Origin: Caballeronia novacaledonica
GTDB lineage: Bacteria; Pseudomonadota; Gammaproteobacteria; Burkholderiales; Burkholderiaceae
Direction: 5' to 3'
NCBI RefSeq assembly: GCF_900258035.1
Contig: NZ_OGTP01000002.1
Coordinates: 1-64,000 of the forward strand
DNA length: 64,000 nt
The notes under the pieces are model-generated. The model did not search any database. It was not told where the DNA came from and saw only the letters and a list, made by a program, of their open reading frames with translations. Numbering within the stretch: position 1 is the first letter of the stretch; every line of letters starts with the position of its first letter. Position numbers and translations under genes: made by a program. Of this stretch, positions 30,642-43,830 are shown piece after piece.

Positions 30642-32099
30642 ATGGAACTGCAGTGCCCCAGTCTTTTCGAGCAATCGGCGTATATCGGCGGCGCGTGGGT
30701 CGACAATACTTCGCTGCCGCGCGTGCCCGTCGTCAATCCTTCCACCGGCGAGATCATCGGCTCCATTCCGCAAGTCACGGCGGAGCAGGTGACCGAAGCC
30801 ATCGAATGCGCGAATGCGGCCTTGCGCGACTGGCGCAACTGGAGCAGCCGCGAACGCGCTTCGGTGCTGCGCGAGTGGGCGCGCCTCGTCGAACATCATC
30901 GCGACGATCTCGCCATCATCCTGTGCACCGAGCAAGGCAAGCCGCTGCACGAAGCGCGTTCCGAAATCACGCAGGCCGCGAATTATCTCGACTGGTTCGC
31001 GGAAGAAGCGCGCCGCATTTACGGCGACAACATCCCCGCGCCGCGCCGCAATCAGCGCATTCGTGTGCTGCATCAGCCGGTCGGCGTATGCGGCGCGATC
31101 ACGTCTTGGACTTTCCCTTCGTCGATGGTCGCGCGACGCGTCGGCGCCGCGCTCGCGGCGGGCTGCACGGTCATTCATCATCCCGATCCGCAGACGCCGT
31201 ATTCGGCGCTCGCGCTGTGCGCGCTCGGGGAAAACGCGGGCTTGCCGCGTGGCGTCTTGTCGGTTCTGACCGGCGAGAGCGAGCCGATCAGGAGCACGCT
31301 GCTCGCCAATCCCGATGTGAGGAAAGTGTCTTTCACGGGTTCCATCGACGAAGGCAAGCGGCTGATGAGCCTGTGCGCATCCACCGTGAAGAAGATGTCG
31401 CTCGAACTGGGCGCGAACTGTCCTTTCATCGTGTTCGACGATGCCGACATCGACCTCGCCGTGAAAGGCGCACTCGATGCGCGTTTCCGTCACTCGGGTC
31501 AGGCGGCCATGTGCGCGAATCGCTTTTTCGTGCATGAAGGCGTGTACGAAACCTTCGTCGCGAAGCTGGTTTCGAAGGTCGCGTTGCTGAAGGTGAGCGA
31601 CGGGCTGGACGAAGGCGCTCAGATCGGCCCGCTCATCGACGACGCGGCGGTGACGCGCATGGAAAGTCTCGTCGATGAAGCGGTGAAGCTCGGCGCGAAG
31701 ATCGCGGCGGGCGGCTCGCGTGTCGCGCCCGGATCGAACTTCTTCAGGCCGACGGTGCTGACGGGCGTCGATCCGTCGATGGGCGTATGCGGCGACGAAG
31801 TCCTCGGGCCGATTGCGAGCGTGCTGCCGTTCAGGGACGAAGACGACGTCGTCACGCTCGCGAACGATACGCGCACCGGGCTCGCGGCTTACTTCTACAC
31901 GGCGGATATCAGCCGCGCATTTCGCGTGATGGAAGCGCTGGAATGCGGTGTCGTCGGCGTGAACGACAGCCTCGTGTTCAACGAGGTCGCACCGTTCGGC
32001 GGCATCAAGGAATCAGGGATGGGGCGCGAAGGCGCGTCGTCGGGCGTCGAGGAATATCTGGAAGCGAAGTATGTTTGTTTCGGGAATCTGGAGCGTTAG
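30642..32099 (+). CDS. Aldehyde dehydrogenase homologue lacking the catalytic cysteine
   Basis: The 485-residue product is full length for the succinate-semialdehyde dehydrogenase branch and starts after GGAGCG at 30632. Several active-site positions are changed. The catalytic Cys of the GQTCVCANR motif is Ala289 (GQAAMCANR; only the second Cys, Cys291, remains). The oxyanion Asn of PWNFP is Thr157 (SWTFP). The NAD-binding Lys before PxxQTP is His180 (HHPDPQTP). The general-base Glu255 (LELGAN) and EVLGP are kept. The frame is intact and G/C-biased, so it is expressed or recently silenced. It is probably not a classical dehydrogenase; an NAD-binding, sensory or altered-chemistry role is possible. 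Confidence 0.85.
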   Translation: MELQCPSLFEQSAYIGGAWVDNTSLPRVPVVNPSTGEIIGSIPQVTAEQVTEAIECANAALRDWRNWSSRERASVLREWARLVEHHRDDLAIILCTEQGKPLHEARSEITQAANYLDWFAEEARRIYGDNIPAPRRNQRIRVLHQPVGVCGAITSWTFPSSMVARRVGAALAAGCTVIHHPDPQTPYSALALCALGENAGLPRGVLSVLTGESEPIRSTLLANPDVRKVSFTGSIDEGKRLMSLCASTVKKMSLELGANCPFIVFDDADIDLAVKGALDARFRHSGQAAMCANRFFVHEGVYETFVAKLVSKVALLKVSDGLDEGAQIGPLIDDAAVTRMESLVDEAVKLGAKIAAGGSRVAPGSNFFRPTVLTGVDPSMGVCGDEVLGPIASVLPFRDEDDVVTLANDTRTGLAAYFYTADISRAFRVMEALECGVVGVNDSLVFNEVAPFGGIKESGMGREGASSGVEEYLEAKYVCFGNLER

Positions 32100-32169
32100 G
32101 GTTATGGCCACTCGCAAGCAACGATAAGTCAGGCCCTTTTTCGCCGCGCACATTCATCGCGGACCAGAA

Positions 32170-32205
32170 AAAAGTGCCATCGAAACTGACTTTTTTATAG
32201 GGACG
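32170..32205 (+). promoter_or_regulatory. Shared 36-nt element, copy A
   Basis: This copy lies upstream of the amidohydrolase-MFS-dioxygenase-TolB operon. It reads as an A-run with GTGCCA, then TCGAAA, then CTTTTTTATA and GGGACG at the right edge. It aligns without gaps to copies at 37591 and 39839. A TATTCT -10-like box starts at 32223, so the right edge of the element occupies the -35 position (about 17-18 nt spacing). CCAGAAAA also appears 13 nt upstream of the TGCCA part. Confidence 0.65.
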
Positions 32206-32294
32206 CGCGCGGCGTCCTCTTCTATTCTCTGTCCCATCGAGACGATTCGCCGGCGCTGACATTCTTTCAGCGCCGCCGCCCAGAGAAGAGAAGC

Positions 32295-33146
32295 ATGACT
32301 CATCCAATCATCGACATTCACCCGCACATCGTCTCCGACGATGAAACGCGCTATCCGCCCGCACCGCTTTTCGGCACGCGTTCCGATTGGTCGAAAGAGC
32401 GCCCGGCGACCGTCGAGGCATTGATCGCCGCCATGGATCAGGCGGGCGTCGCGAAAGCCGCTGTCGTGCATTCGTCGACGACATATGGTTTCGATAACAA
32501 CTATGTCGTCGACGGCTGCGCGCAATATGCGGACCGTCTGGTCGCCGTGGGCTCCGTCGACGTGCTGCAACCCGATGCGCCGCGACGCATTCGCGAGTGG
32601 ATCGGACTCGGGCTCGCGGGCTTGCGCCTTTTCACCGGCGGCAGCACGAAGGAATTCGATCCGCGCGAACTCGACGACGAGCGCTCGTTTCCCGCATGGG
32701 AGTTGTGCAGCGAGCTCGGCTTGCCGATATGCATCCAGACGGGCCCGGTCGGATTGCCGCAGGTGACGAGGCTCGCGAAACGCTTTCCCAGCGTGGCGAT
32801 CGTTCTCGATCATCTCGCCCGGCCCGAAATCGACGATGGCATGCCGTACGAGAAAGCACAGAGCCTCTTCGATCTGGCGGCGTTCGACAACATGTATCTG
32901 AAACTCACGCCGCGCATTTTCGGCGATGTGAGGAAGGGAAACGCCAGCGCCGACACATTCTTTCCGGCCGTGGTTGACGCCTTCGGCGCGCAGCGGATGG
33001 CGTGGGGCTCCAACTTCCCGACTTCGCCGGGCTCGCTCGCGGAGATTCTCGCGACCGCGCAAGAAGGACTCGCTTCGCTGTGCGCGGAAGACCGTGCGTG
33101 GATTTTCGGCAAGACTGCGCAGCAGTTGTATCCGGCTTTGGCCTGA
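32295..33146 (+). CDS. Amidohydrolase-family protein (COG3618-like)
   Basis: The 283-residue product is a TIM-barrel amidohydrolase starting MTHPIIDIHPHIVSDD, with the His-x-His metal pair. Later come LDHLARP (metal His) and RMAWGSNFPTSPGS at the place where many members have GSD; Asn here is also seen in a COG3618 subgroup. Members hydrolyse lactones such as 2-pyrone-4,6-dicarboxylate or sugar lactones. It is the first gene of an operon with an MFS transporter, a ring-opening dioxygenase and a TolB-like protein, so it may act on a ring-cleavage or lactone intermediate. The substrate is unknown. Confidence 0.82.
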   Translation: MTHPIIDIHPHIVSDDETRYPPAPLFGTRSDWSKERPATVEALIAAMDQAGVAKAAVVHSSTTYGFDNNYVVDGCAQYADRLVAVGSVDVLQPDAPRRIREWIGLGLAGLRLFTGGSTKEFDPRELDDERSFPAWELCSELGLPICIQTGPVGLPQVTRLAKRFPSVAIVLDHLARPEIDDGMPYEKAQSLFDLAAFDNMYLKLTPRIFGDVRKGNASADTFFPAVVDAFGAQRMAWGSNFPTSPGSLAEILATAQEGLASLCAEDRAWIFGKTAQQLYPALA

Positions 33147-33201
33147 AGTCGTGCGAACGCGCTTTGCACGATAACCAACCTCATAAAAGAGAAAGAAGCA
33201 G

Positions 33202-34491
33202 ATGGAGACAAGCAGAGCGGCAAGCGCATCAAAAGCGGGAAACGCGGGCCGCTGGGCCGTGCTCGCGCTTCTTGCGATCGGCGTGTTGATTTCATTCGTC
33301 GATCGGACCAGCATTTCGTCGACGCTCGCGGACGCGAATTTCATCCGGCATTTCGCGCTCACGGACATCGATCGCGGCTGGATCAACGCGGCCTTCTTCT
33401 GGTCGTACGGCGTCTTTCAGATTCCGATGGGCTGGGTCGCCGACCGCTACGGCGTCAAATGGCCCTACGCGATCAGCTTCGCGGCGTGGTGCATCGCCAC
33501 CGCATTGATGGGCGCGGTCACGGCGCTGTCGGCGCTTGTCGTGATGCGGCTCATCATCGGCATGGCGGAAGCTATCGTGATTCCCGCGAGTTATCGCTGG
33601 ATCCGCAATAACTTCGATGAAAGCCAGAACGGTCTCGCCGTCGGCATTCTCGCGATGGGCAACAAGTTCGGTCCCGCGCTCGGCGCACCGGTCGGCGCGT
33701 GGTTCATCGTCAACTATTCGTGGCAGATGATGTTCATCGCGACGGGCCTCGTCGGGCTGATCTGGCTCGCGCCGTGGCTCCTGATCGTGAAGAACGACAT
33801 GCCGTCGAAGGAAGAGCGCACGTCGAACGATCGTAGCGCGCGCACCGTCAGCCTCGCGAACATTCTTTCGAGCCCGGTCGTGTGGGGCGGCATGACCACC
33901 AACTTCTGCTACGGCTATTTCACGTTCTATTGCATGACGTGGATGCCCGCGTATCTGGTCGAGCAGCGCAACCTGTCGATATCGAAGTCCGGCATTTTCA
34001 CCTTCTTCAGCTTCGCGGGCATTGCGATTGTCGCGGCTGGCGCGGGATGGGCGGCGGACCGCATCATCGCGCGGGGACATGACCCGATTCTCGTGCGCAA
34101 GGCGTTCACGATCGCGGGGTTCATCGGCGGATGCACGGTTCTGCTCGGCGCTTATGCGCAGACCGTCGAGATGGCGCTCTTCTGGAACGTGCTCTCGCTT
34201 TCGCTGCTCGGCTTCGTCACCGCGAACAATCTCGTGCTGTCGCGTCTCACGTTGATTCCGAAGCAGGCGATCGGCCTCGTGACCGGCGTGCAGCAAGTCG
34301 CGACGAGTCTCGCGGGCGGCGTGGCGGCGAGCGTATCCGGCTGGCTGCTTCATATGAGCGGAAGTTACGACCTGCCGATGCTCGTGATCCTCGTCTTTCT
34401 GCTCATCGGCGCGACGGCCACGGCGATTCTGTATCGGCCCGAATGGGCGCCGAAAGTGATCGACGCGCCCGGCACGCTGCACCGCGCATAG
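33202..34491 (+). CDS. MFS transporter, anion:cation symporter type
   Basis: The 429-residue product has twelve predicted membrane helices and a typical ACS-family start (LLAIGVLISFVDRTSISSTL), with the MFS loop motif GWVADRYGVKW between helices 2 and 3. This family imports organic anions such as aromatic acids, galactonate or phthalate. It lies 55 nt after the amidohydrolase and 61 nt before the dioxygenase, suggesting that it imports the pathway substrate. An AGAGAAAGAAG ribosome site precedes the start. Confidence 0.88.
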   Translation: METSRAASASKAGNAGRWAVLALLAIGVLISFVDRTSISSTLADANFIRHFALTDIDRGWINAAFFWSYGVFQIPMGWVADRYGVKWPYAISFAAWCIATALMGAVTALSALVVMRLIIGMAEAIVIPASYRWIRNNFDESQNGLAVGILAMGNKFGPALGAPVGAWFIVNYSWQMMFIATGLVGLIWLAPWLLIVKNDMPSKEERTSNDRSARTVSLANILSSPVVWGGMTTNFCYGYFTFYCMTWMPAYLVEQRNLSISKSGIFTFFSFAGIAIVAAGAGWAADRIIARGHDPILVRKAFTIAGFIGGCTVLLGAYAQTVEMALFWNVLSLSLLGFVTANNLVLSRLTLIPKQAIGLVTGVQQVATSLAGGVAASVSGWLLHMSGSYDLPMLVILVFLLIGATATAILYRPEWAPKVIDAPGTLHRA

Positions 34492-34552
34492 CACTCATGG
34501 CAAGCCGACGCATGCGGCTTGGCAATCAGACTAAAACATAGAGAAATCGTAC

Positions 34553-35539
34553 ATGGCGAAGATCGTATTCGGGATGGCCGTGCCGCATAGCGGCATGCTC
34601 GGGCAGGCACCGGAAGACTGGTTGAAGAACGGCGAGCGCGACCGTCTCAATCCGGAGTTGTGGTTCCGCAATCGGACCTGGACGTATCCGGAACTCGAAG
34701 CGCATCGTGAAGCGGCGTTCGAAAAGTATCTGACGATCGAGGAACGCACCGCGCGCGCGGCGCGCTGCCGCGCCGCGCTCGACGAGATGGCCGCGGCGTA
34801 TCGCGAAGCGAAAATCGATGTCGCGATCATTCTTGGCAAAGACCAGAAAGAGATCTTCACCGAGTTCTCGCCTTCGATTGCAATCTATAGCGGCGCGCAA
34901 GTGCATAACGGCCCGCCGCAGCGCGCGGTCTATGCGCCGGATCATCATGTGGTGCATGAATGTCATCCGAAGCTCGCGAAGCATCTCATCGGGCACTTCC
35001 AGCGCGACGGCTTCGATCTCACGGATCTCTTCGCGTGGCCGGACAACGTATGGATGAAGCCGCTGCCCGAATATCCGGTCGTGCCGCACGCATACAGCTT
35101 CGTCTATCACCAGATCATGGGCGACAATCCGCCGCCGCATGTGCCGGTCATCATGAACTGTTTCTATCCGCCGACGCAGCCGTCGATGGCGCGTTGCATC
35201 GAGTTCGGCCGCGTGCTGCGCGATGCGATCGCCGCGTGGCCGGACGATGTGCGCGTCGGCATCTTCGCGTCGGGCGGGCTCTCGCACTTTGTCAACGACG
35301 AAGAGTTCGATCATCGCATCATGAAGATGCTCGCCGATTACGACTACGACGGACTCGCCGCTGTCGATGATCGTTCTTATCAGTCGGGCACGTCGGAGAT
35401 CAAGCTCTATGTGAGCGTGATGAAGGCCGTGCAGGAGACGCGCGCGCAGATGACGCTGGTCGATTATGTTCCGTGCTGGCGCACGCCCGCCGGCACCGGC
35501 GAAGGCATGGGCTTCATGTACTGGAAAGCCGCCGAGTGA
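34553..35539 (+). CDS. LigB-type extradiol ring-opening dioxygenase
   Basis: The 328-residue product belongs to the class III extradiol dioxygenase family (LigB/DODA-like), which uses Fe(II) to cleave catecholic rings. Likely metal and catalytic residues are His11 in VPHSG, the His in APDHHVVHECH and VPHAYSFVYHQ, and the late His in GGLSHFVNDEE. No LigA-like small-subunit gene is present, so it may act alone. The surrounding operon offers import (MFS) and hydrolysis (amidohydrolase). The precise aromatic substrate cannot be read from the sequence. Confidence 0.82.
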   Translation: MAKIVFGMAVPHSGMLGQAPEDWLKNGERDRLNPELWFRNRTWTYPELEAHREAAFEKYLTIEERTARAARCRAALDEMAAAYREAKIDVAIILGKDQKEIFTEFSPSIAIYSGAQVHNGPPQRAVYAPDHHVVHECHPKLAKHLIGHFQRDGFDLTDLFAWPDNVWMKPLPEYPVVPHAYSFVYHQIMGDNPPPHVPVIMNCFYPPTQPSMARCIEFGRVLRDAIAAWPDDVRVGIFASGGLSHFVNDEEFDHRIMKMLADYDYDGLAAVDDRSYQSGTSEIKLYVSVMKAVQETRAQMTLVDYVPCWRTPAGTGEGMGFMYWKAAE

Positions 35540-35593
35540 ATCGGAATAAATGCACGCCGCTCGCATAAGCATGAATATCGGAGACATATCGCT

Positions 35594-37504
35594 GTGAAAT
35601 TCGCATCGTCTTTAGACAGGCTTCTGGCCTGCATGGCTATCGGGAGCGCCTGGGCTTTCATATCGACGGGAGCGCATGCCGCGCCCAATGGCGATCTCTT
35701 GCTCAATCGCGTGGGGCCGGTGACATCCGAGCTGTATGTGTCGAACGCGGACGGTACGAACGAGCACAAACTGCTCCCGACCGAGGGCTTCGACTATCAC
35801 GCCTCCTTTTCGAAAGATGGGCAATGGATCGTGTTCACGTCCGAGCGCGATGGATTGGGACAGTCGAATATCTATCGCGTGAAAGCCGATGGAACCGGAT
35901 TGCAGCGCCTCACCGATCACATCGCGATAGACGATGCCGCCGTGTTCTCTCCGAGCGATCCGAATACCATCGCCTTCGTTTCATCGCGCAGAGGCGCGGC
36001 GGAATTCGGCACGACGAACGTGTGGACATTGAACATCGCGACGGGCGCGCTCATGAACGTCACCGGCTCGATCAGGTTCGATCCGGAAAAGCCGCATGGT
36101 TTCTTCCGGCCGTCGTGGTCGCCGGATGGGAAGTGGCTCGCGTTGCCGTCGGATATCGGCTCGGATTGGCGCGGGCATAACTTGCCCGTGGGATGGGAGC
36201 GCACGCAGGAAAGCAGCATCTATCTGATTCGGCCCGATGGTTCGGGATGGAAGAAGATCGCAAGCAATCCCGGCTATGACGACGGCTCGCCTTCGTGGTC
36301 GCCGGATGGAAAGCATGTCGTGTTCTATGAAACGCCGGTTGAATCGACGTGGGGCGCGCATCGTCCGGAAGGCATCAATTCGGTGAGCACGCAGATCATG
36401 TCGGTCGATGTGGGCAGCCTCGCAAAGAACGCGTTGACTTCCACGCCCGGTTTCAAGGTGTTTCCGCAATATGTCAATGCGACCGACGTCGCGTATCACG
36501 TGAAGGGCGGCGAGACCGAAGGCATCTATACGACGGCCGGCGTTTTTCACTCGACGAGCAACACGGGCATCCGCTCGCCGCATTATTCCGCCGATGGCAC
36601 GAAGATGGTCTACGAGAAGGTGACGTTCCGTCCCGCGCGCGCGAACGGGGCGGCGCTGTTCAGTTTCGATCCGGCGTGGGACTACAAGTATGTCGACGTA
36701 TTCCCGCAGTTGTCGGCGGATCGCAAGAAGCTCGTGTACACGGAGAAGGCGCTCAATTCGTCCATCGCGATCGTCAACCCTGATTTCTCGGGTTATACGC
36801 GCATCTACGATGCCTCGACCAGCGGTCTCGATGCGGCCATGGTCAAGAAAGGACTCGCGGGCGCATTCCAGCCGACGTGGTCGCCGAATCGCGAGTGGGT
36901 TGCGTTCGGCTTGGGTGACTGGTTCTTCACGCGTGGCGCGGGGCCGGGCCGCATCGCACGCATCAAGGCCGATGGCAGCATGAACGGGCATCCCGAGATC
37001 CTGACCGATGGCTCGATCAATGCGGGCTTTCCGAGCTATTCGCCGGACGGGAAGAAGATCGTCTATCGCGTGTGGAGTCCGAAGGTGCAGGGCTTGCGCA
37101 TACTCGATCTGGATATGCGCACGACCACGGTGCTCACGACGGATGCGGATAACCTGCCGGGCTGGTCGCCGGACGGCACGAAGATCGTATTCACGCGCAA
37201 ACAGATCAATCCGGGCGATCCGAACAAGTTCAACTATGACGTGTTCACGATCAGTCCGGACGGCACGGGTCTCGCGCGACTCACAGCGGATGGATCGAAC
37301 CAGGGACATGCGGTGTGGACGTGGGATGGACGCATTGCGTACAGCTCCGGAACATATGGCTTCAGGGACGAACTCGCACTCTACGACAACAGCTTCCAGC
37401 CGGACGGCCAGAACTGGGTGATGAACGCGGACGGAAGCGATCAGCATCCGATCACCGATACGCTGTGGGAAGAGGCGATGCCGATGTACATACCGAAGCC
37501 TTGA
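35594..37504 (+). CDS. Exported TolB-like beta-propeller protein (PD40 repeats)
   Basis: The 636-residue product uses a GTG start 8 nt after GGAGAC and has a signal peptide (LLACMAIGSAWAFISTGAHA). The mature part is a chain of TolB/WD40-like repeats with the PD40 core, for example SFSKDGQWIVFTSERDG, SWSPDGKHVVFYE, SYSPDGKKIVYRV and GWSPDGTKIVFTR. This predicts a periplasmic propeller. It lacks the N-terminal domain of TolB and any hydrolase domain. As the last gene of the operon, followed by a strong terminator, it may bind a substrate or assist the outer-membrane channel encoded next. Confidence 0.82.
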   Translation: MKFASSLDRLLACMAIGSAWAFISTGAHAAPNGDLLLNRVGPVTSELYVSNADGTNEHKLLPTEGFDYHASFSKDGQWIVFTSERDGLGQSNIYRVKADGTGLQRLTDHIAIDDAAVFSPSDPNTIAFVSSRRGAAEFGTTNVWTLNIATGALMNVTGSIRFDPEKPHGFFRPSWSPDGKWLALPSDIGSDWRGHNLPVGWERTQESSIYLIRPDGSGWKKIASNPGYDDGSPSWSPDGKHVVFYETPVESTWGAHRPEGINSVSTQIMSVDVGSLAKNALTSTPGFKVFPQYVNATDVAYHVKGGETEGIYTTAGVFHSTSNTGIRSPHYSADGTKMVYEKVTFRPARANGAALFSFDPAWDYKYVDVFPQLSADRKKLVYTEKALNSSIAIVNPDFSGYTRIYDASTSGLDAAMVKKGLAGAFQPTWSPNREWVAFGLGDWFFTRGAGPGRIARIKADGSMNGHPEILTDGSINAGFPSYSPDGKKIVYRVWSPKVQGLRILDLDMRTTTVLTTDADNLPGWSPDGTKIVFTRKQINPGDPNKFNYDVFTISPDGTGLARLTADGSNQGHAVWTWDGRIAYSSGTYGFRDELALYDNSFQPDGQNWVMNADGSDQHPITDTLWEEAMPMYIPKP

Positions 37505-37529
37505 TGCGCTAAATACACTGCAAGACCGA

Positions 37530-37562
37530 AGCGCCGTGCTCGCATCGCACGGCGCTTTTTTT
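37530..37562 (+). terminator. Rho-independent terminator after the dioxygenase operon
   Basis: A perfect 10-bp stem, AGCGCCGTGC and GCACGGCGCT, encloses a 7-nt loop and is followed by seven T residues. It lies 26 nt after the TolB-like stop and separates that operon from the outer-membrane protein gene, which then needs its own promoter (copy B of the shared element). Confidence 0.9.
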
Positions 37563-37590
37563 CGCTTGAAAAGAAGTGCAGGTTATCGAC

Positions 37591-37626
37591 AAAAATGCCA
37601 GTGAATATAACTTTTGTGTAAAGGCT
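37591..37626 (+). promoter_or_regulatory. Shared 36-nt element, copy B
   Basis: This copy lies upstream of the Tsx-like outer-membrane protein gene. It has AAAAATGCCAGTGAAT, then ATAACTTTTGTG and TAAAGGCT. It aligns gap-free with copies A and C. A TAATAT -10 box begins at 37644, 17 nt after the right edge of the element. It is the only plausible promoter between the terminator at 37562 and the gene. Confidence 0.65.
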
Positions 37627-37705
37627 AACCGTCCCGATTTAAATAATATTCCTTAGCACCGCAACACTAAAAGCCAAACGTCAGCGGCGCGGAAATAAAA
37701 ACACC

Positions 37706-38701
37706 ATGGACGGAGACATGAAAAAGATATCGGTAGCTTTGCGCAAGCCGCTTTTCGGCGCGGCGCTATTGTGCTGTTTGAGCGAGTTCGCTCAGGCGGA
37801 AGTCTACACGGCGCCCAGCGCATCGACGCCGACGCCGGCGAAGGAAACGCAGACGGTCCAGCCGAGCGCGACCGCACCGCTTTCCGCGCCGAGCCTCAAG
37901 TCGGCCGAAGAACTCGGTGAGCCGCCGGTGACGTGGAACGACACGTATATCGGCTATCGCTATGGCCGCGACTTCCACTATCCGGGCGTGCCCGACAAGG
38001 TCACGCAGAACATCGGCTATCTGACGACGACGGGCGGATTCCGTTTCGGCACTTACGCGTTCAATGTCGATTACCTCGTATCCGACGACGCGAATCCGGA
38101 AGCGGGCGGTCCTTCATCGGGCGGCGCGCAGGAGGTGTACAGCGTGGGCCGCGTCGAACTGAGCGCGGGGAAGATACTCGGGCGGTCTGTCGGCTATGGC
38201 TTCGTTCGAGACTTCGGCGTGACGGCCGGCTATGAATTCGGCACCAAGAACGACGCCTTCGCGCAGCGCGCGCGCATGTTCGTGTTCGGCCCGACAATCG
38301 AATTCTCGGTGCCGCACGGCTTCTGGAACGTGACGGCGGGACTCAGAACGGAGAGCAATCACAACGGCATTTCGGGCGTGGACGTCCGTTTCGATACCGC
38401 ATGGCATGTCGAAAGTTCATGGCTTTTTCCGTTCAGGCTCGGCCCGCTGCCGTTCATCTTTCGAGGCTTCGCGAGCGTGACCGGTCCCAAGGGTAAAGAC
38501 GGTTTCGGCGTCGAGACACAAACGGAATTCCTGACACGCATGTCGTTGCTCGCGGACCTCGGCTCGTTCGCCGGTCATCCGCGCACCGTGTATGCGGGCG
38601 TCGGCTACGAATACTGGCATCACATGTACGGCACGCCGACGAGCGCCGCGGTCAGCACGATCACATCCGTGCCGATGCTGATGGCGGAAATCCACTTCTG
38701 A
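37706..38701 (+). CDS. Tsx/OmpK-like outer-membrane channel
   Basis: The product is 331 residues from the ATG at 37706, or 327 from the ATG at 37718; the CGGAGA before the second is only 1-2 nt away, too close to serve it. A signal peptide ends at FAQAEV. The barrel region contains WNDTYIGYRYGRDFHYPG and a late GVGYEYWHHMYG, reminiscent of nucleoside-channel (Tsx/OmpK) proteins, and ends in EIHF with the terminal Phe. It probably provides outer-membrane uptake for the substrate of the adjacent regulon. Confidence 0.75.
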   Translation: MDGDMKKISVALRKPLFGAALLCCLSEFAQAEVYTAPSASTPTPAKETQTVQPSATAPLSAPSLKSAEELGEPPVTWNDTYIGYRYGRDFHYPGVPDKVTQNIGYLTTTGGFRFGTYAFNVDYLVSDDANPEAGGPSSGGAQEVYSVGRVELSAGKILGRSVGYGFVRDFGVTAGYEFGTKNDAFAQRARMFVFGPTIEFSVPHGFWNVTAGLRTESNHNGISGVDVRFDTAWHVESSWLFPFRLGPLPFIFRGFASVTGPKGKDGFGVETQTEFLTRMSLLADLGSFAGHPRTVYAGVGYEYWHHMYGTPTSAAVSTITSVPMLMAEIHF

Positions 38702-38765
38702 TTCGATGCACGCGCGCCGCGTGCGATATGCGCGGCGCCATCGTCCGGGTAAGCAGCAGGCGCAC

Positions 38766-38806
38766 GTCACGGAAATCTATGGAAAAATAGCGCTCATTTC
38801 CGTGAC
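38766..38806. promoter_or_regulatory. 11-bp inverted repeat before the AraC gene
   Basis: GTCACGGAAAT (38766-38776) is repeated in perfect inverted form as ATTTCCGTGAC (38796-38806). The 19-nt spacer itself has a CTAT and ATAG pairing. There is no T-run, so a terminator is unlikely. It lies 80-120 nt before the AraC start and does not match the shared 36-nt element. It may be an operator for autoregulation or an RNA hairpin in the leader. Confidence 0.45.
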
Positions 38807-38885
38807 TCTCCTTGCGGGTCGAGATGAGGCGGCCGGAATATAAATGACGGCCGCTATCGTTTGCCGCGGCCGCCAAGGAGACTTC

Positions 38886-39830
38886 ATGACACACGGTGCC
38901 TCGGCAAAGCATCAACCCAAAGCGGGTGCCAAAGGAAAGCTCGCGACGGTTCCGAAAGTACGGCTCTACGTCGAACGCCCCGAGAAGGAACACTGGTTCG
39001 TGCACGTCGGGCATGTCACCGATCGCGGGCGCTGGCGCACCGAGCCTCATGCGCATCCCGCATACGGTCAACTCATCTTCGTGCGCAGCGGGCGCGGGGT
39101 GATGAATCTCGAAGGCAGCAGCGTGGCGTTCGAAGGCCCATGCGCGTTGTTGTTGCCCACCGAATGCGTGCATGGTCTCGACTACGAACTCGACGTCGAC
39201 CGTTGGGTGGTTACGATCGAGGTCTCCTATCTGGCGCAAGTCAACGCCAGGCTCCATGAGTTCATTGCATTGTGGTCCTCGCCGCGCGTGATTTCTTTCA
39301 CGGAATCCGCCGATGCGGGTATCGCTTTCTGCAATCTGATTCGAAGCCTCAAGGAGGAAATCGAATCCGATGCAGTCGGTCATGTGGTCGGCACAGAAGC
39401 GTTGCTCACGACGCTTCTGCTCAAACTGGTTCGCGAGACGCGCCTCGACGAAACGGGAGGCGAGAGCGCCACGCGTAACGATATCCGTCTGGTCGAGCGT
39501 TTCCGCAAGCTTATCGACGAGCATTTTCGCGAGAATCTCGGGCTGCAGGATTATGGGTCGAAGATGGCCGTATCGCTCGTGCAACTGCGCGCGGCGTGCG
39601 CGTCCGCCGCGGAGCAAAGCCCGACGAAGATGATCCACGCGCGCATCGTCACCGAGGCGAAACGCAATCTGATCTTCGGCGATATGTCGGTGGAGCAGAT
39701 CGCATTCGGACTCGGTTTTGCGGACGCGGCGTATTTCACGCGCTTTTTCCGCAGGGAAGTGGGACAGGCGCCGAGCCAGTTTCGCGCCGTCGCGCGGCAA
39801 CAGCCGCAGCGTAAAGCATCCGCGCAGTGA
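38886..39830 (+). CDS. AraC-family regulator
   Basis: The 314-residue product has an N-terminal cupin sensing domain (HAHPAYGQLIFVRSGRGVM) and a C-terminal double helix-turn-helix ending in the AraC signature (MSVEQIAFGLGFADAAYFTR, then FFRREVGQAPSQFR). The ATG at 38886 follows AAGGAG. It sits between units whose promoters all carry the same 36-nt element, which makes it the best candidate for binding that element. The effector is probably the imported substrate or a breakdown product. Confidence 0.9.
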   Translation: MTHGASAKHQPKAGAKGKLATVPKVRLYVERPEKEHWFVHVGHVTDRGRWRTEPHAHPAYGQLIFVRSGRGVMNLEGSSVAFEGPCALLLPTECVHGLDYELDVDRWVVTIEVSYLAQVNARLHEFIALWSSPRVISFTESADAGIAFCNLIRSLKEEIESDAVGHVVGTEALLTTLLLKLVRETRLDETGGESATRNDIRLVERFRKLIDEHFRENLGLQDYGSKMAVSLVQLRAACASAAEQSPTKMIHARIVTEAKRNLIFGDMSVEQIAFGLGFADAAYFTRFFRREVGQAPSQFRAVARQQPQRKASAQ

Positions 39831-39838
39831 CGCCAGCG

Positions 39839-39874
39839 AAAAGTCCCAGAGAATCGACGTTTTGTACAGGGACG
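39839..39874 (+). promoter_or_regulatory. Shared 36-nt element, copy C
   Basis: This copy lies upstream of the lactonase gene, starting 9 nt after the AraC stop. It reads AAAAGTCCCAGAGAAT, then CGACGTTTTGTA and CAGGGACG. Compared with copy A, the right end (GGGACG) is identical, and with copy B the GAAT and CTTTTGT/GTTTTGT core is shared. CCAGCGAA occurs 13 nt upstream of CCAGAGAA as an extra direct repeat. A weak -10-like AATACG lies about 16 nt downstream. Confidence 0.65.
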
Positions 39875-39933
39875 TGCATCGGCGAATCGAATACGCTTGA
39901 GCCTTGTTTTCAACGGTCCAAAGCTATTTGCAT

Positions 39934-41085
39934 ATGATCCGGTCGTGGTTTGGAATCAGATTGACGGCGCTGTTCGTGCTTGGTTTGCTTGCTGGCACGG
40001 CGAGCGCGTCGGACCAGATCGCTTCATCGAACGATTCGGAAACAGAACTCGTCTATGTGGGCTCGCAAGAGCGGCATATCCATGCGCTGCGCCTGGATAC
40101 ATCGACGGGGACACTCACGAACATCGGAACGGTCGCGGATAACTTGCGTCCCACGTGGGTCGAAGCGCATCCGCAACGGCCCGTGCTCTACGCCGTCGAC
40201 GACGACAACGCGAAAGAAGGCAGCGTTACCGCATACGCGGTGGATCGCGCGTCGGGCGCGTTGACGAAGATGGGCGCGGTCGCGACGAAAGGCATCGGCA
40301 CCACGAATCTGCATGTGGACATCGCTTCGATGACCTTGCTCGCCGCGAACTACGTCAGCGGCTCCGTATCGAGCATTCAAATCGATGATGATGGCAATTT
40401 GATGTCGCTCGCATCCACGATCACGGAAACCGGCTCCGGGCCCAATCGACGTCAAGCCAGCGCGCATGCGCATAACGCCGTGATCGATCCATCGGGACGA
40501 TATGCACTCGTTCCCGATTTCGGCGCGGATCGCGTGTTCGTCTATCGTTTCGATCGCACGACGCGCGCATTGTCTTCCGACGATGCGGCGCATACGTTCA
40601 TCGCATCGCCGGGCAGCGGGCCGCGTCATATCGTATTCGGCGCGAGCGGACGACTTGCCTATCTGATCACCGAGCTATCGGCGCAAGTGCTGGTGTTGCG
40701 CTGGGATGCAACGCAGGGCCGTCTCTCGCTCGTGCAATCGCTGCCGATCACGAGCGCCGAATTTCAGGGCGTAAAAAGCGGCGCGGAGATCGCGGCGAGT
40801 CGCGATGGGCGTTTCGTCTATGTCGAGAATCGCGCGGAAAATGCTTTGCTCGTCTATCGCGTCGATGCGGAATCAGGCGAACTCTCGGAGATGCAGCGCG
40901 TTTCGTCGAGCGGCTCAAAGCCCTGGGGGTTCGCGATCGACGCATCGGGCAAATGGATGATCGTCGCGAATCAGCAGAGCGGCACAGTGAACGTGTTTCG
41001 CATCGATCCGGCGTCCGGCATGTTGTCGGACACCGGACAATCCGCCGATATCGCGTCTCCGGTCAGCATCGCGTTCGTGCGATGA
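39934..41085 (+). CDS. Exported lactonase-family beta-propeller protein
   Basis: The 383-residue product has a signal peptide (LTALFVLGLLAGTASA) and a seven-bladed propeller of the 6-phosphogluconolactonase/YkgB type (ELVYVGSQERHIHALRLD; GSGPRHIVFGASGRLAYLI; SSGSKPWGFAIDASGKWMIV). Secretion argues against the pentose pathway and for hydrolysis or binding of an external lactone. ATG at 39934 is preferred over TTG at 39904, though no clear ribosome site is seen. Its promoter carries copy C of the shared element, so it belongs with the dioxygenase operon. Confidence 0.8.
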   Translation: MIRSWFGIRLTALFVLGLLAGTASASDQIASSNDSETELVYVGSQERHIHALRLDTSTGTLTNIGTVADNLRPTWVEAHPQRPVLYAVDDDNAKEGSVTAYAVDRASGALTKMGAVATKGIGTTNLHVDIASMTLLAANYVSGSVSSIQIDDDGNLMSLASTITETGSGPNRRQASAHAHNAVIDPSGRYALVPDFGADRVFVYRFDRTTRALSSDDAAHTFIASPGSGPRHIVFGASGRLAYLITELSAQVLVLRWDATQGRLSLVQSLPITSAEFQGVKSGAEIAASRDGRFVYVENRAENALLVYRVDAESGELSEMQRVSSSGSKPWGFAIDASGKWMIVANQQSGTVNVFRIDPASGMLSDTGQSADIASPVSIAFVR

Positions 41086-41088
41086 GCG

Positions 41089-43830
41089 CTAACGGCCCAT
41101 CGCCGCCGCAGCCTCTTCTTGCAGGCGCACGCTCATGACGGGCGCTTCCGGCCCGACGTGCGACAGTTTCATCAGACGCGGTTGCAACAACAGCGCCACG
41201 AGACCGCTCCATCCTGTCTGATGCGAAGCCCCGACGCCGCGCCCGTTGTCGCCATGAAAGTACTCGTGAAAGAGAATGAGATCCTGCGAGCGCGGATCGG
41301 CTTGCAGCATCGGATACGCGGCCATCACGGGGCGCTTGCCATCGGCATCTTTCAGAAACAGCGTGCCGATGCGCCGCGACAGATCGTCCGCGATTTCGCT
41401 CAGCGAATGCATTTTTCCGGAGCCCGTCGGATGCTCGACGCGAAACTCGTCGCCATAGTAGCGATGAAACTCGTAAAGCGATTCGATCAGCAAGTAATTG
41501 ACCGGCATCCAGATCGGGCCGCGCCAGTTCGAATTGCCGCCGAATACACGCGAATCCGATTCCGCGGGCAAATATCGGATGCAGACATTCACGCCGTCGT
41601 GATCGAATACGTAGGGCTTTTCGCAATGCACGCGCGATAGCGCACGCACGCCATAGTCGGATAAGAATTCGCTTTCATCGAGCGTGCGCCGCAAGAGCGC
41701 TTTCATGCGATGTCCGCGCAATAGCGAAAGCAATGTGGTATTGCCCTTGCCGGGCTCGGTCCAGCGCGACACGAGCTTCGCGAGATTCGGCCGATGATCG
41801 AGAAACCACGCGAGCCTTTCGCGCAGTCCCGGCAGGTCGCCATACACGCGCTCTTCGAGCACGTGCACCGCGAAGAGCGGTATGAGCCCGACGATGGATC
41901 GAATGCGCATCGGCACGCGCGCGCCGTTCGGCAGATGCAGCACGTCGTAGAAGAATTCGTCGCTGCGGTCCCATAAGCCCGTCATGCAGGCTTCGCCGCA
42001 ACTCACCGCTTCCGCGATATACAGGAAGTGCTCGAAGAACTTCACCGCGATCTCGACATAAGACTCGTTGGTCATCGCGAGTTCGAGGCCGATCTGCATG
42101 AGGTCGAGCGCATACGACGCCATCCACGCGGTGCCATCGGCCTGATCGATGCGTCCGCCTGTCGGCAGCGGCTGCGAGCGATCGAAGATGCCGATGTTAT
42201 CGAGCCCGAGAAAGCCGCCCTGAAAGATGTTGCGGTCGTCGGCATCCTTGCGGTTGACCCACCACGCGAAGTTGAGGAGCAGCTTGTGAAACATCACTTC
42301 GAGAAACGCATGATCGCCGATGCCGGTCATCTCGCGATCCAGCTCGAACACGCGCCACGTCGCCCACGCATGCACGGGCGGATTTGCGTCGCCGAATGCC
42401 CATTCATACGCGGGCAATTGCCCGTTCGGATGCATGTAGCGCTCTTTCACGAGCAGCGATAACTGCTTCTTCGCGAAGTCCGGATCGATGGTTGCGAACG
42501 CAACCGCATGAAACGCGAGATCCCACGACGCGTACCACGGATACTCCCATTTGTCGGGCATCGATACGATGTCGCCATTGCACATGTGCCGCCAGTCCGC
42601 ATTACGGCCGTGCCGACGATCTTTCGGCGGAACGGGCTGACCCGGATCGCCGTCGTGCCAGCGCGTGACGTCGAACTGGTAATACTGCTTCGTCCACAGC
42701 ATGCCGGCGAGCGCCTGACGCTGCACGAGACGCGCATCGGCATCGTCGATATCGTGTTGCAGCGTCGCGTAGAACTCGTCGGCTTCCGTTTCGCGGCGCG
42801 CGAATAGCTGCGCCATGTCGAGCGGCGGATCGTTCGACACCGCTGCCGGCCGCCAGCGCAGATACATCACCGACTGTTCGTGCGGCCCGAGTTGCAGGCA
42901 CGCATGCGCGGCGCTGCGCGTGCCATGATCGCGCCGGATGGCGTGTTCATCGCCTTCGACGAGATAGTCGTTGATGCCGTCCTTGAAGGGGCCCACGCCC
43001 TCCATGCCGAAAATGCGGCGAACGTTCGTTTCGTTTTCGCAGAAGAGCCATTCGATGGGCGTCTCTGCCGATGCCGTGACCAGCATCGCGCCGTGCGACG
43101 GATCGTGCGCCGCGACGCGCGCGCCTTCGCGTGCGTCCTGCTCCAGCGTCAGCGAAGGCTTGCCCCATTTGCTCGACCACGACCACCGGTTGCGCGCCCA
43201 GAACTGCGGCAGCACATGAAGTGTCGCGGCCTCGTTCGCGCGATTCTCGATGGTCACGCGCATCACGACGTCATCGTGCGTGTGCTTCGCATATTCGACG
43301 CAGACATCGAAGTAGCGGTCGTTATCGAATACGCCGGTATCGAGCACTTCGTATTCCGGAAGCTCGGGGCCGCGCCGCCTGTTTTCGTCGATGAGTTGCT
43401 GATAGGGATACGCGTCGTGCGGATACTTGTACAGCATCTTCATGTACGAATGCGTCGGCGTGCCGTCGAGATAGAAGTACAGTTCCTTCACATCCTCGCC
43501 GTGATTGCCTTGCTCGTTCGTCAGGCCGAAGAGCCGCTCCTTGATGATCGGATCGCGCTCGTTCCATAACGCAAGCGACACACACCAGTCGAGCGGATCG
43601 TTGCCGAATCCGGCGATACCGTCCTCGCCCCATCGATACATGCGGCTGCGCGCATGGTCGTGCGGAAAGTAATCCCAGGCGGTTCCATACTCGCTGTAAT
43701 CCTCGCGGACCGTGCCCCATTGACGCTCGCTCAGGTAAGGCCCCCAGCGCCGCCAGCGGTCGCGTTCGGCGCCGTGCAGGCGAGCGCCTTCTTTCGTTTG
43801 CAGCAGATGGATTGCGCGTAACGGCGGCAT
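41089..43830 (-). CDS. Large GH63/MGH1-like glycoside hydrolase
   Basis: The 913-residue product starts at 43830, with GGAGGT correctly placed upstream. It matches the bacterial glucosidase group related to GH63 and mannosylglycerate hydrolase: an N-terminal beta domain (WRRWGPYLSERQWGTVREDY) and an (alpha/alpha)6 barrel (RGPIWMPVNYLLIESLYEFH; HEYFHGDNGRGVGASHQTGW). These enzymes release glucose or mannosyl-glycerate type sugars. No signal peptide is present, so it acts in the cytosol. It is convergent with the lactonase, 3 nt apart, and transcribed alone. Confidence 0.82.
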   Translation of the reverse strand: MPPLRAIHLLQTKEGARLHGAERDRWRRWGPYLSERQWGTVREDYSEYGTAWDYFPHDHARSRMYRWGEDGIAGFGNDPLDWCVSLALWNERDPIIKERLFGLTNEQGNHGEDVKELYFYLDGTPTHSYMKMLYKYPHDAYPYQQLIDENRRRGPELPEYEVLDTGVFDNDRYFDVCVEYAKHTHDDVVMRVTIENRANEAATLHVLPQFWARNRWSWSSKWGKPSLTLEQDAREGARVAAHDPSHGAMLVTASAETPIEWLFCENETNVRRIFGMEGVGPFKDGINDYLVEGDEHAIRRDHGTRSAAHACLQLGPHEQSVMYLRWRPAAVSNDPPLDMAQLFARRETEADEFYATLQHDIDDADARLVQRQALAGMLWTKQYYQFDVTRWHDGDPGQPVPPKDRRHGRNADWRHMCNGDIVSMPDKWEYPWYASWDLAFHAVAFATIDPDFAKKQLSLLVKERYMHPNGQLPAYEWAFGDANPPVHAWATWRVFELDREMTGIGDHAFLEVMFHKLLLNFAWWVNRKDADDRNIFQGGFLGLDNIGIFDRSQPLPTGGRIDQADGTAWMASYALDLMQIGLELAMTNESYVEIAVKFFEHFLYIAEAVSCGEACMTGLWDRSDEFFYDVLHLPNGARVPMRIRSIVGLIPLFAVHVLEERVYGDLPGLRERLAWFLDHRPNLAKLVSRWTEPGKGNTTLLSLLRGHRMKALLRRTLDESEFLSDYGVRALSRVHCEKPYVFDHDGVNVCIRYLPAESDSRVFGGNSNWRGPIWMPVNYLLIESLYEFHRYYGDEFRVEHPTGSGKMHSLSEIADDLSRRIGTLFLKDADGKRPVMAAYPMLQADPRSQDLILFHEYFHGDNGRGVGASHQTGWSGLVALLLQPRLMKLSHVGPEAPVMSVRLQEEAAAAMGR

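What the first reader, a model, noticed from the sequence alone, without database searches (positions are those of the whole stretch)
32170..39874. Three promoters around an AraC gene share an ungapped 36-nt element
Elements at 32170-32205, 37591-37626 and 39839-39874 align without gaps: an A-run, TGCCA/CCCAG, GAA(T), a CTTTTGT-like core and GGGACG or a near form at the right edge. In each, a -10-like hexamer follows about 16-18 nt later, so the right edge sits where a -35 box would be, as expected for class II activation. The three driven units are the amidohydrolase-MFS-dioxygenase-TolB operon, a Tsx-like channel and a secreted lactonase. A perfect terminator (37530-37562) isolates the second. 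The AraC gene lies between the second and third. I saw no copy elsewhere in the window.
Basis: partly seen in the sequence, partly recalled or inferred. Interest (0 to 1): 0.8.

Follow-up and report, generated by a model that had tools for sequence, protein, structure and literature searches.

The report
AraC-type regulon with 36-bp promoter operator
Three promoters beside an AraC-type regulator gene in a soil bacterium carry the same 36-letter DNA switch, which is conserved with exact spacing in related bacteria and appears to turn on an aromatic ring-cleaving and uptake system; it is a new, well-supported example of a familiar kind of gene switch.

Summary
The three 36-nt elements sit exactly where stated, align without gaps (23-26 of 36 identical pairwise), and are the only exact matches to their shared pattern in the 6.78-Mb genome. 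All 35 of 398 family genomes with an orthologue of this AraC gene carry the element. Of the other 363, 14 match: 12 share a different promoter, one looks like chance, one looks like a relic. It also occurs at all 15 more distant AraC loci examined.
In relatives it precedes the LigB-dioxygenase operon, the Tsx-like channel, the lactonase and some porins; the operon, channel and lactonase each keep their own variant. A -10 (TAnnnT) follows after exactly 17 nt in 92 of 95 promoters and 29 of 30 distant sites, so the element's last six bases occupy the -35 position: class II geometry.
Best reading: the operator of a local AraC/XylS-type activator for a predicted extradiol (protocatechuate/gallate-like) pathway. 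AraC binding, effector and substrate are inferred, not shown. A tandem repeat inside the element was tested and not supported. Seven paper searches listed no report of it. New member of a known kind.

The parts
32170..32205 (+). Element 1, promoter of the amidohydrolase-MFS-LigB-TolB operon; last six bases 32200-32205 lie at the -35 position
32223..32228 (+). -10 hexamer TATTCT, 17 nt after element 1
37591..37626 (+). Element 2, promoter of the Tsx-like channel; carries the AAGGC right edge typical of channel promoters in relatives
37644..37649 (+). -10 hexamer TAATAT, 17 nt after element 2
39839..39874 (+). Element 3, promoter of the lactonase gene; begins 9 nt after the last base of the AraC stop codon
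39892..39897 (+). -10 hexamer TACGCT, 17 nt after element 3
38886..39830 (+). AraC/XylS-type regulator gene (314 aa from this ATG; 328 aa if it starts at 38844), presumed to bind the elements
32295..33146 (+). Amidohydrolase (Amidohydro_2; distantly like 4-sulfomuconolactone hydrolase and a putative 2-pyrone-4,6-dicarboxylate hydrolase)
33202..34491 (+). MFS transporter
34553..35539 (+). LigB-type class III extradiol dioxygenase
35594..37504 (+). TolB-like PD40 beta-propeller protein
37528..37558 (+). Intrinsic terminator after the operon, before element 2
37706..38701 (+). Outer-membrane channel, predicted barrel of 12 long strands, best fold match Tsx
39934..41085 (+). Lactonase (PF10282) with a signal-like N-terminus (read by eye); start taken at ATG 39934

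Best explanation
The 36-nt element is the operator of the AraC/XylS-type protein encoded at 38886-39830. With its effector, probably an aromatic acid or a breakdown product, the protein would bind the element, most likely as a dimer, and contact RNA polymerase at promoters that lack a normal -35 box, since the operator's last six bases sit where the -35 would be (class II activation). In this genome it would switch on three units: a ring-cleavage operon, a Tsx-like outer-membrane channel and a lactonase. Shown here: element, spacing, targets, conservation and linkage to this AraC gene. Inferred: binding, activation rather than repression, the effector and the pathway.
For: Linkage: AraC orthologue in 35 of 398 family genomes, all 35 with the element; of the other 363, 349 have no match. 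Targets: 97 distinct elements in 35 of 36 regions examined; by nearest reference gene on the same strand within 3.5 kb they precede the lactonase 34, channel 19, amidohydrolase/MFS operon 18, TolB 2, a unit upstream of AraC 12, none of the reference genes 12. Target-specific variants: RAGGC at 31-35 in 18 of 19 channel promoters and 0 of 78 others; CCATYGAA in 12 of 18 operon promoters and 2 of 79 others; CAGGGAC in 25 of 34 lactonase promoters and 0 of 37 channel and operon promoters, though also in 9 of the 26 remaining elements. Conservation: 25 of 36 positions carry at least 1 bit; the 20 bases upstream carry 0.10 or less except the last four (up to 0.52). Distant AraC proteins (62-72% identical): 15 of 15 loci with the element. 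Geometry: TAnnnT at element position 54 in 92 of 95 promoters and at no other tested position in more than 3; 29 of 30 in the distant set, none of which entered the matrix. No TTGACA-type sigma-70 promoter match in 32000-41200. Reversed-sequence control: 0 sites in 1,061,639 bases.
Against: No binding or expression data. LigB occurs in exactly the same 35 genomes as AraC, so co-occurrence cannot single out AraC among the cluster genes. The tandem half-sites expected of the family were tested and not supported. One paralogous AraC locus (L106/L152, 71% identical) has no element in the stretch held, about 10 kb on one side and 1.7 kb to the contig end on the other, although the same genome has five matches elsewhere. 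A second cluster of pathway enzymes in this genome has no element.
Confidence: 0.86

Rival explanations
1. The element is bound by another regulator encoded elsewhere, and the AraC protein is only a neighbour.
For: Co-occurrence holds equally for LigB; no binding data; no element directly before the AraC gene in the window.
Against: AraC lies near element-bearing promoters in 52 of 53 named loci, although these loci were chosen by AraC. The length (36 bp) and the reach to -35 match what was measured for an AraC-type aromatic regulator, CphR (sites at -35 to -69; PMC6205950, passages).
Confidence: 0.07
2. The AraC protein binds the elements but acts mainly as a repressor, blocking the -35 region.
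For: The operator covers the -35 position.
Against: The promoters have no -35 consensus to block (GGGACG or AAGGCT there; no TTGACA-type match), so unaided activity should be low. A fixed distance to the -10 in 92 of 95 promoters is what an activator touching polymerase would require.
Confidence: 0.05
3. The element is an extended promoter read by a special sigma factor.
For: Fixed distance to the -10; the right edge is at -35.
Against: 36 nt is longer than a sigma -35 contact, the conserved left half lies far upstream of -35, and the -10 (TAYNNT) is sigma-70-like (promoter knowledge recalled).
Confidence: 0.01
4. The three sites are copies left by segmental duplication, or chance.
For: Pairwise identity is only 64-72%.
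Against: Printed flanks do not look alike (by eye); each window element carries the variant typical of its own gene's promoter in relatives; 3 exact matches and one at 3 mismatches in 6.78 Mb, against 0 in the control.
Confidence: 0.01

Closest known systems
XylS/Pm and CphR promoters (AraC/XylS family)
   Same: Regulators of aromatic catabolism with a two-HTH DNA-binding domain; the CphR operator spans about 35 bp (-69 to -35) and so reaches the -35 region, as here
   Different: XylS and CphR sites are two 15-bp direct repeats, box TGCA, six bases, box GGTA/GGNTA (PMC5481539 and PMC6205950, passages read). Here box B is absent and a repeat is not statistically supported.
HpaA (4-hydroxyphenylacetate regulator, TIGR02297)
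   Same: Best NCBIfam match of the AraC protein, E 4.9e-43
   Different: 147.4 bits against a cutoff of 274.65, so not an HpaA equivalog. HpaA's own operator was not compared; the search for it listed five papers, of which only CphR's was opened.
Protocatechuate 4,5-cleavage / gallate pathways (Lig, Gal; gene names recalled)
   Same: LigB-type dioxygenase and LigI-like amidohydrolase in the window; in relatives the element-led operon also holds a 4-oxalomesaconate hydratase (LigJ type), an HpcH/HpaI aldolase and a 4,5-dihydroxyphthalate-decarboxylase-like protein
   Different: Dioxygenase only distantly related to solved gallate and protocatechuate 4,5-dioxygenases (E 2e-5 to 7e-5); substrate unknown; AraC-type control with channel and beta-propeller proteins in the predicted regulon

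Membership tests
AraC/XylS family regulator | C-terminal double HTH domain (HTH_18) | tested here: met
   PF12833 E 8.6e-18, 64.9 bits against cutoff 33.6, residues 240-314
AraC/XylS family regulator | N-terminal AraC-type ligand-binding domain | tested here: inconclusive
   PF02311 20.5 bits, just under its cutoff of 21.1
HpaA equivalog | Score above the TIGR02297 cutoff | tested here: not met
   147.4 against 274.65 bits
XylS-type operator | TGCA-N6-GGNTA in each half-site | tested here: not met
   Position frequencies of the 97 elements show TGCC at 6-9 and TGYA at 27-30 but no GGNTA six bases later
XylS/AraC-type operator | Two direct repeats about 20-21 bp apart | tested here: inconclusive
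   Consensus halves share GTGC(C)AGSGA, but 3279 of 20000 shuffles score as high and 108 of 200 column permutations reach the per-element mean; offset scan z -0.25 at 20 and 0.17 at 21
Class II activator-dependent promoter | Operator overlaps the -35 position, with fixed spacing to the -10 | tested here: met
   TAnnnT at position 54 in 92 of 95 and 29 of 30
Class II activator-dependent promoter | Transcription requires the activator | not testable with these tools
   Needs expression experiments
Tsx-like channel | 12-stranded barrel like Tsx | tested here: met
   12 long strands in the model, mean pLDDT 72.1; best PDB match 1tlw, E 2.4e-9, TMt 0.70, TMq 0.54; 10% identity and no Pfam hit, so function is not implied

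The most novel reading that the evidence does not exclude
The element is an asymmetric, non-repeat operator in which two AraC monomers read different half-sites rigidly docked to RNA polymerase, and the regulon is an undescribed envelope-plus-cytoplasm module: channel, porins, lactonase and TolB-like propellers outside, a meta-cleavage pathway inside, for a plant-derived aromatic whose first step is extracytoplasmic.
Probability: 0.25. Interest if true: 0.6.

Novelty: new member of a known kind. Interest (0 to 1): 0.45.

Why it matters
It defines an operator, a promoter geometry and a target list for an uncharacterised AraC-type regulator found in several genera of soil and plant-associated beta-proteobacteria (Caballeronia, Paraburkholderia, Cupriavidus, Duganella, Massilia and others, by record title). 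A scan for the 36-nt element names candidate regulon members directly, including genes with no other functional clue (TolB-like, lactonase, Tsx-like channel). It also gives a short list of experiments to find the aromatic substrate.

Tried and rejected
Tandem-repeat model: tested by offset scan, local alignment and shuffles; not supported. Inverted symmetry: best centre z 2.71 at position 13, one of many centres tried, not pursued.

Separating AraC from LigB by genomes that have one without the other: both occur in the same 35 of 398 family genomes. A phylum-wide draw gave only 2 of 398 genomes with LigB, both already known, so no test was possible. LigB relatives 74-77% identical exist in Novosphingobium records (best 120 of 1295 listed); their regulation was not examined.

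Matches in AraC-less genomes: 12 genomes of genus g3 share a different conserved promoter. I looked at 4 of the 12; it lies beside a gene starting MKVLDLRCAQ. One hit (G329) looks like chance. G379 has no AraC orthologue (best E 3.6e-8) and no LigB at E 1e-80. Its two elements look like relics: one before a channel ORF of about 144 codons, the other with no -10 at the usual place and none of the cluster's genes downstream, only a 30% porin-like ORF nearby.

Outside the family: 3 of 300 genomes drawn from the order match, two of them family members already known to have AraC and one with a single 2-mismatch hit. AraC was not searched in that draw, so it is a specificity control, not a limit of range.

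My first patterns had a column shifted by one and found only element 2; corrected.

DNA-binding domain against sensing domain: identity to relatives is not consistently higher in the DNA-binding domain (67-85% against 61-72% in six loci, lower in L159), so nothing was built on it.

Literature: seven searches that ran listed no paper whose title or abstract opening describes this regulon; two searches listed only 15 of 22 and 12 of 32. Only PMC CC-licensed papers are held. I read passages of two papers; the rest were seen as search listings only.
Full report
WHAT IS THERE. The three elements are real and exact. They share AAAA at 1-4, T6, CCA at 8-10, GAA at 13-15, TTTT at 22-25, T27, A30, G33 and C35. 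In the 6.78-Mb own genome this pattern has three exact matches, these three, and one further match at three mismatches. The window lies in a Caballeronia genome by inference: genomes called 'same genus' (G357, G317) have contigs of the same length as records titled Caballeronia arvi and C. pedi.

CONSERVATION. An orthologue of the AraC protein (E at most 1e-60) occurs in 35 of 398 genomes of the family. A matrix from the window's three elements alone found a site at all 29 non-own loci first fetched (best score per locus 25.6 to 49.3). A pattern scan of 398 family genomes, up to 2 mismatches, matched 49: all 35 with AraC and 14 others. Of the 14, 12 share a different promoter (4 of the 12 inspected), G329 looks like chance, and G379 looks like a genome that lost the system and kept relics. 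The Fisher value, 3e-39, ignores shared ancestry and should not be read as a probability.

A search of named genomes with an AraC alignment gave 53 loci, many of them the same genomes as above. Of these, 52 hold at least one site of 26 bits or more; the exception, L152, is a paralogous copy near a contig end. There are 139 sites in all, 136 with the -10 at the fixed place, and 0 sites in the same sequence reversed. Fifteen of the 53 loci are more distant and lie outside the regions used to build the matrix. By record title they are Duganella (5), Massilia (2), Janthinobacterium (2), Rhodoferax, Roseateles, Scleromatobacter, an Oxalobacteraceae strain, and two records titled gamma proteobacterium L18 and Pantoea sp. 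18069. All 15 have the element, although their AraC proteins are only 62-72% identical to the window's.

TARGETS. Of 36 regions examined (35 from relatives and the window), 35 hold at least one element of 26 bits; L106 holds none. The 97 distinct elements precede the lactonase (34), the channel (19), the amidohydrolase/MFS-led operon (18), TolB (2), a unit upstream of AraC (12), and none of the reference genes (12); the nearest reference gene on the same strand within 3.5 kb was taken. Some in the last two groups stand before porin genes, as in L080 and L073; the others were not all followed. In the distant loci the element most often leads an operon that begins with the decarboxylase-like gene. 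Each target keeps its own variant: RAGGC at 31-35 in 18 of 19 channel promoters and in 0 of 78 others; CCATYGAA at 8-15 in 12 of 18 operon promoters and 2 of 79 others; CAGGGAC at 29-35 in 25 of 34 lactonase promoters, in none of the 37 channel or operon promoters, and in 9 of the remaining 26. The window's three elements carry the variant of their own class, which argues against recent duplication.

GEOMETRY. Across promoters, T54, A55 and T59 stand at 98, 97 and 98%. TAnnnT begins at position 54 in 92 of 95 promoters and at no other position from 37 to 81 in more than 3; in the distant set it does so in 29 of 30. The matrix covers only positions 1-36, so the -10 is an independent finding. 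Positions 31-36 therefore occupy the -35 place with a 17-nt spacer, but read GGGACG or AAGGCT in the window. A scan for TTGACA-TATAAT promoters over 32000-41200 found none (3.4 expected from shuffles). Positions 49-50 (T 78%, C 73%) are also conserved; the reason is unknown.

INTERNAL STRUCTURE. The family normally binds tandem half-sites (CphR and XylS). The consensus halves here do share GTGC(C)AGSGA about 20-21 bp apart, but this is no better than shuffles, and the GGNTA box of XylS-type sites is absent. I do not claim a repeat.

THE PATHWAY. In the window: an amidohydrolase distantly like a putative PDC hydrolase (E 8.6e-7), an MFS transporter, a LigB-type dioxygenase with weak similarity to gallate and protocatechuate 4,5-dioxygenases, a TolB-like propeller, a barrel whose best fold match is Tsx, and a lactonase. 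In relatives the operon adds a protein like 4,5-dihydroxyphthalate decarboxylase (9jp7, E 6e-47), 4-oxalomesaconate hydratase (2gwg, E 3.5e-147), an HpcH/HpaI aldolase and a TPP enzyme. This reads as an extradiol pathway ending in pyruvate and oxaloacetate, which follows from recalled knowledge of the Lig pathway rather than from a test here. LigB is in the same 35 genomes as AraC.

In the window's own genome the missing enzymes (84-87% identical for decarboxylase, LigJ and aldolase) lie in a second, unlinked cluster on contig C30 with no element in the 18.9 kb read, even at a threshold of 2 bits. A neighbouring gene there looks like a LysR regulator; that is my reading of its sequence, not a family search. 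So in this species the AraC regulon seems to cover only part of the pathway.

WHAT IS NOT SHOWN. No binding, no expression, no effector, no substrate. The AraC protein is the best candidate by position, family and co-occurrence, but LigB co-occurs equally well.

VERDICT. The finding is real and its interpretation well supported: a new member of a known kind, with strong comparative evidence.

Noticed in passing
38766-38806: Perfect 11-bp inverted repeat GTCACGGAAAT-N19-ATTTCCGTGAC upstream of the AraC gene; the same repeat was not seen upstream of AraC in the relatives' regions L072-L106.
   Followed up: partly
L210 (own genome C30, 558000-576900): Second, unlinked cluster with decarboxylase-like, LigJ-like, amidohydrolase, aldolase, TPP and MFS genes and no element.
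   Followed up: partly
L205, L206 (genome G379): Apparent relic elements in a genome without AraC and LigB: one before a short channel ORF, one with no operon downstream.
   Followed up: partly
L049-L054, L057, L058, L060-L063 (genus g3 genomes): A different conserved promoter-like sequence, roughly AATANTANCCGTGAA...TTTTGTGAACGGTC, beside a gene starting MKVLDLRCAQ; 4 of 12 inspected.
   Followed up: partly
Element positions 49-50 (window 32218-32219, 37639-37640, 39887-39888): Conserved TC a few bases before the -10 (T 78%, C 73% of promoters), not explained by a standard extended -10.
   Followed up: no
L106 / L152: Paralogous AraC copy, 71% identical, with no element in the stretch held.
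   Followed up: no
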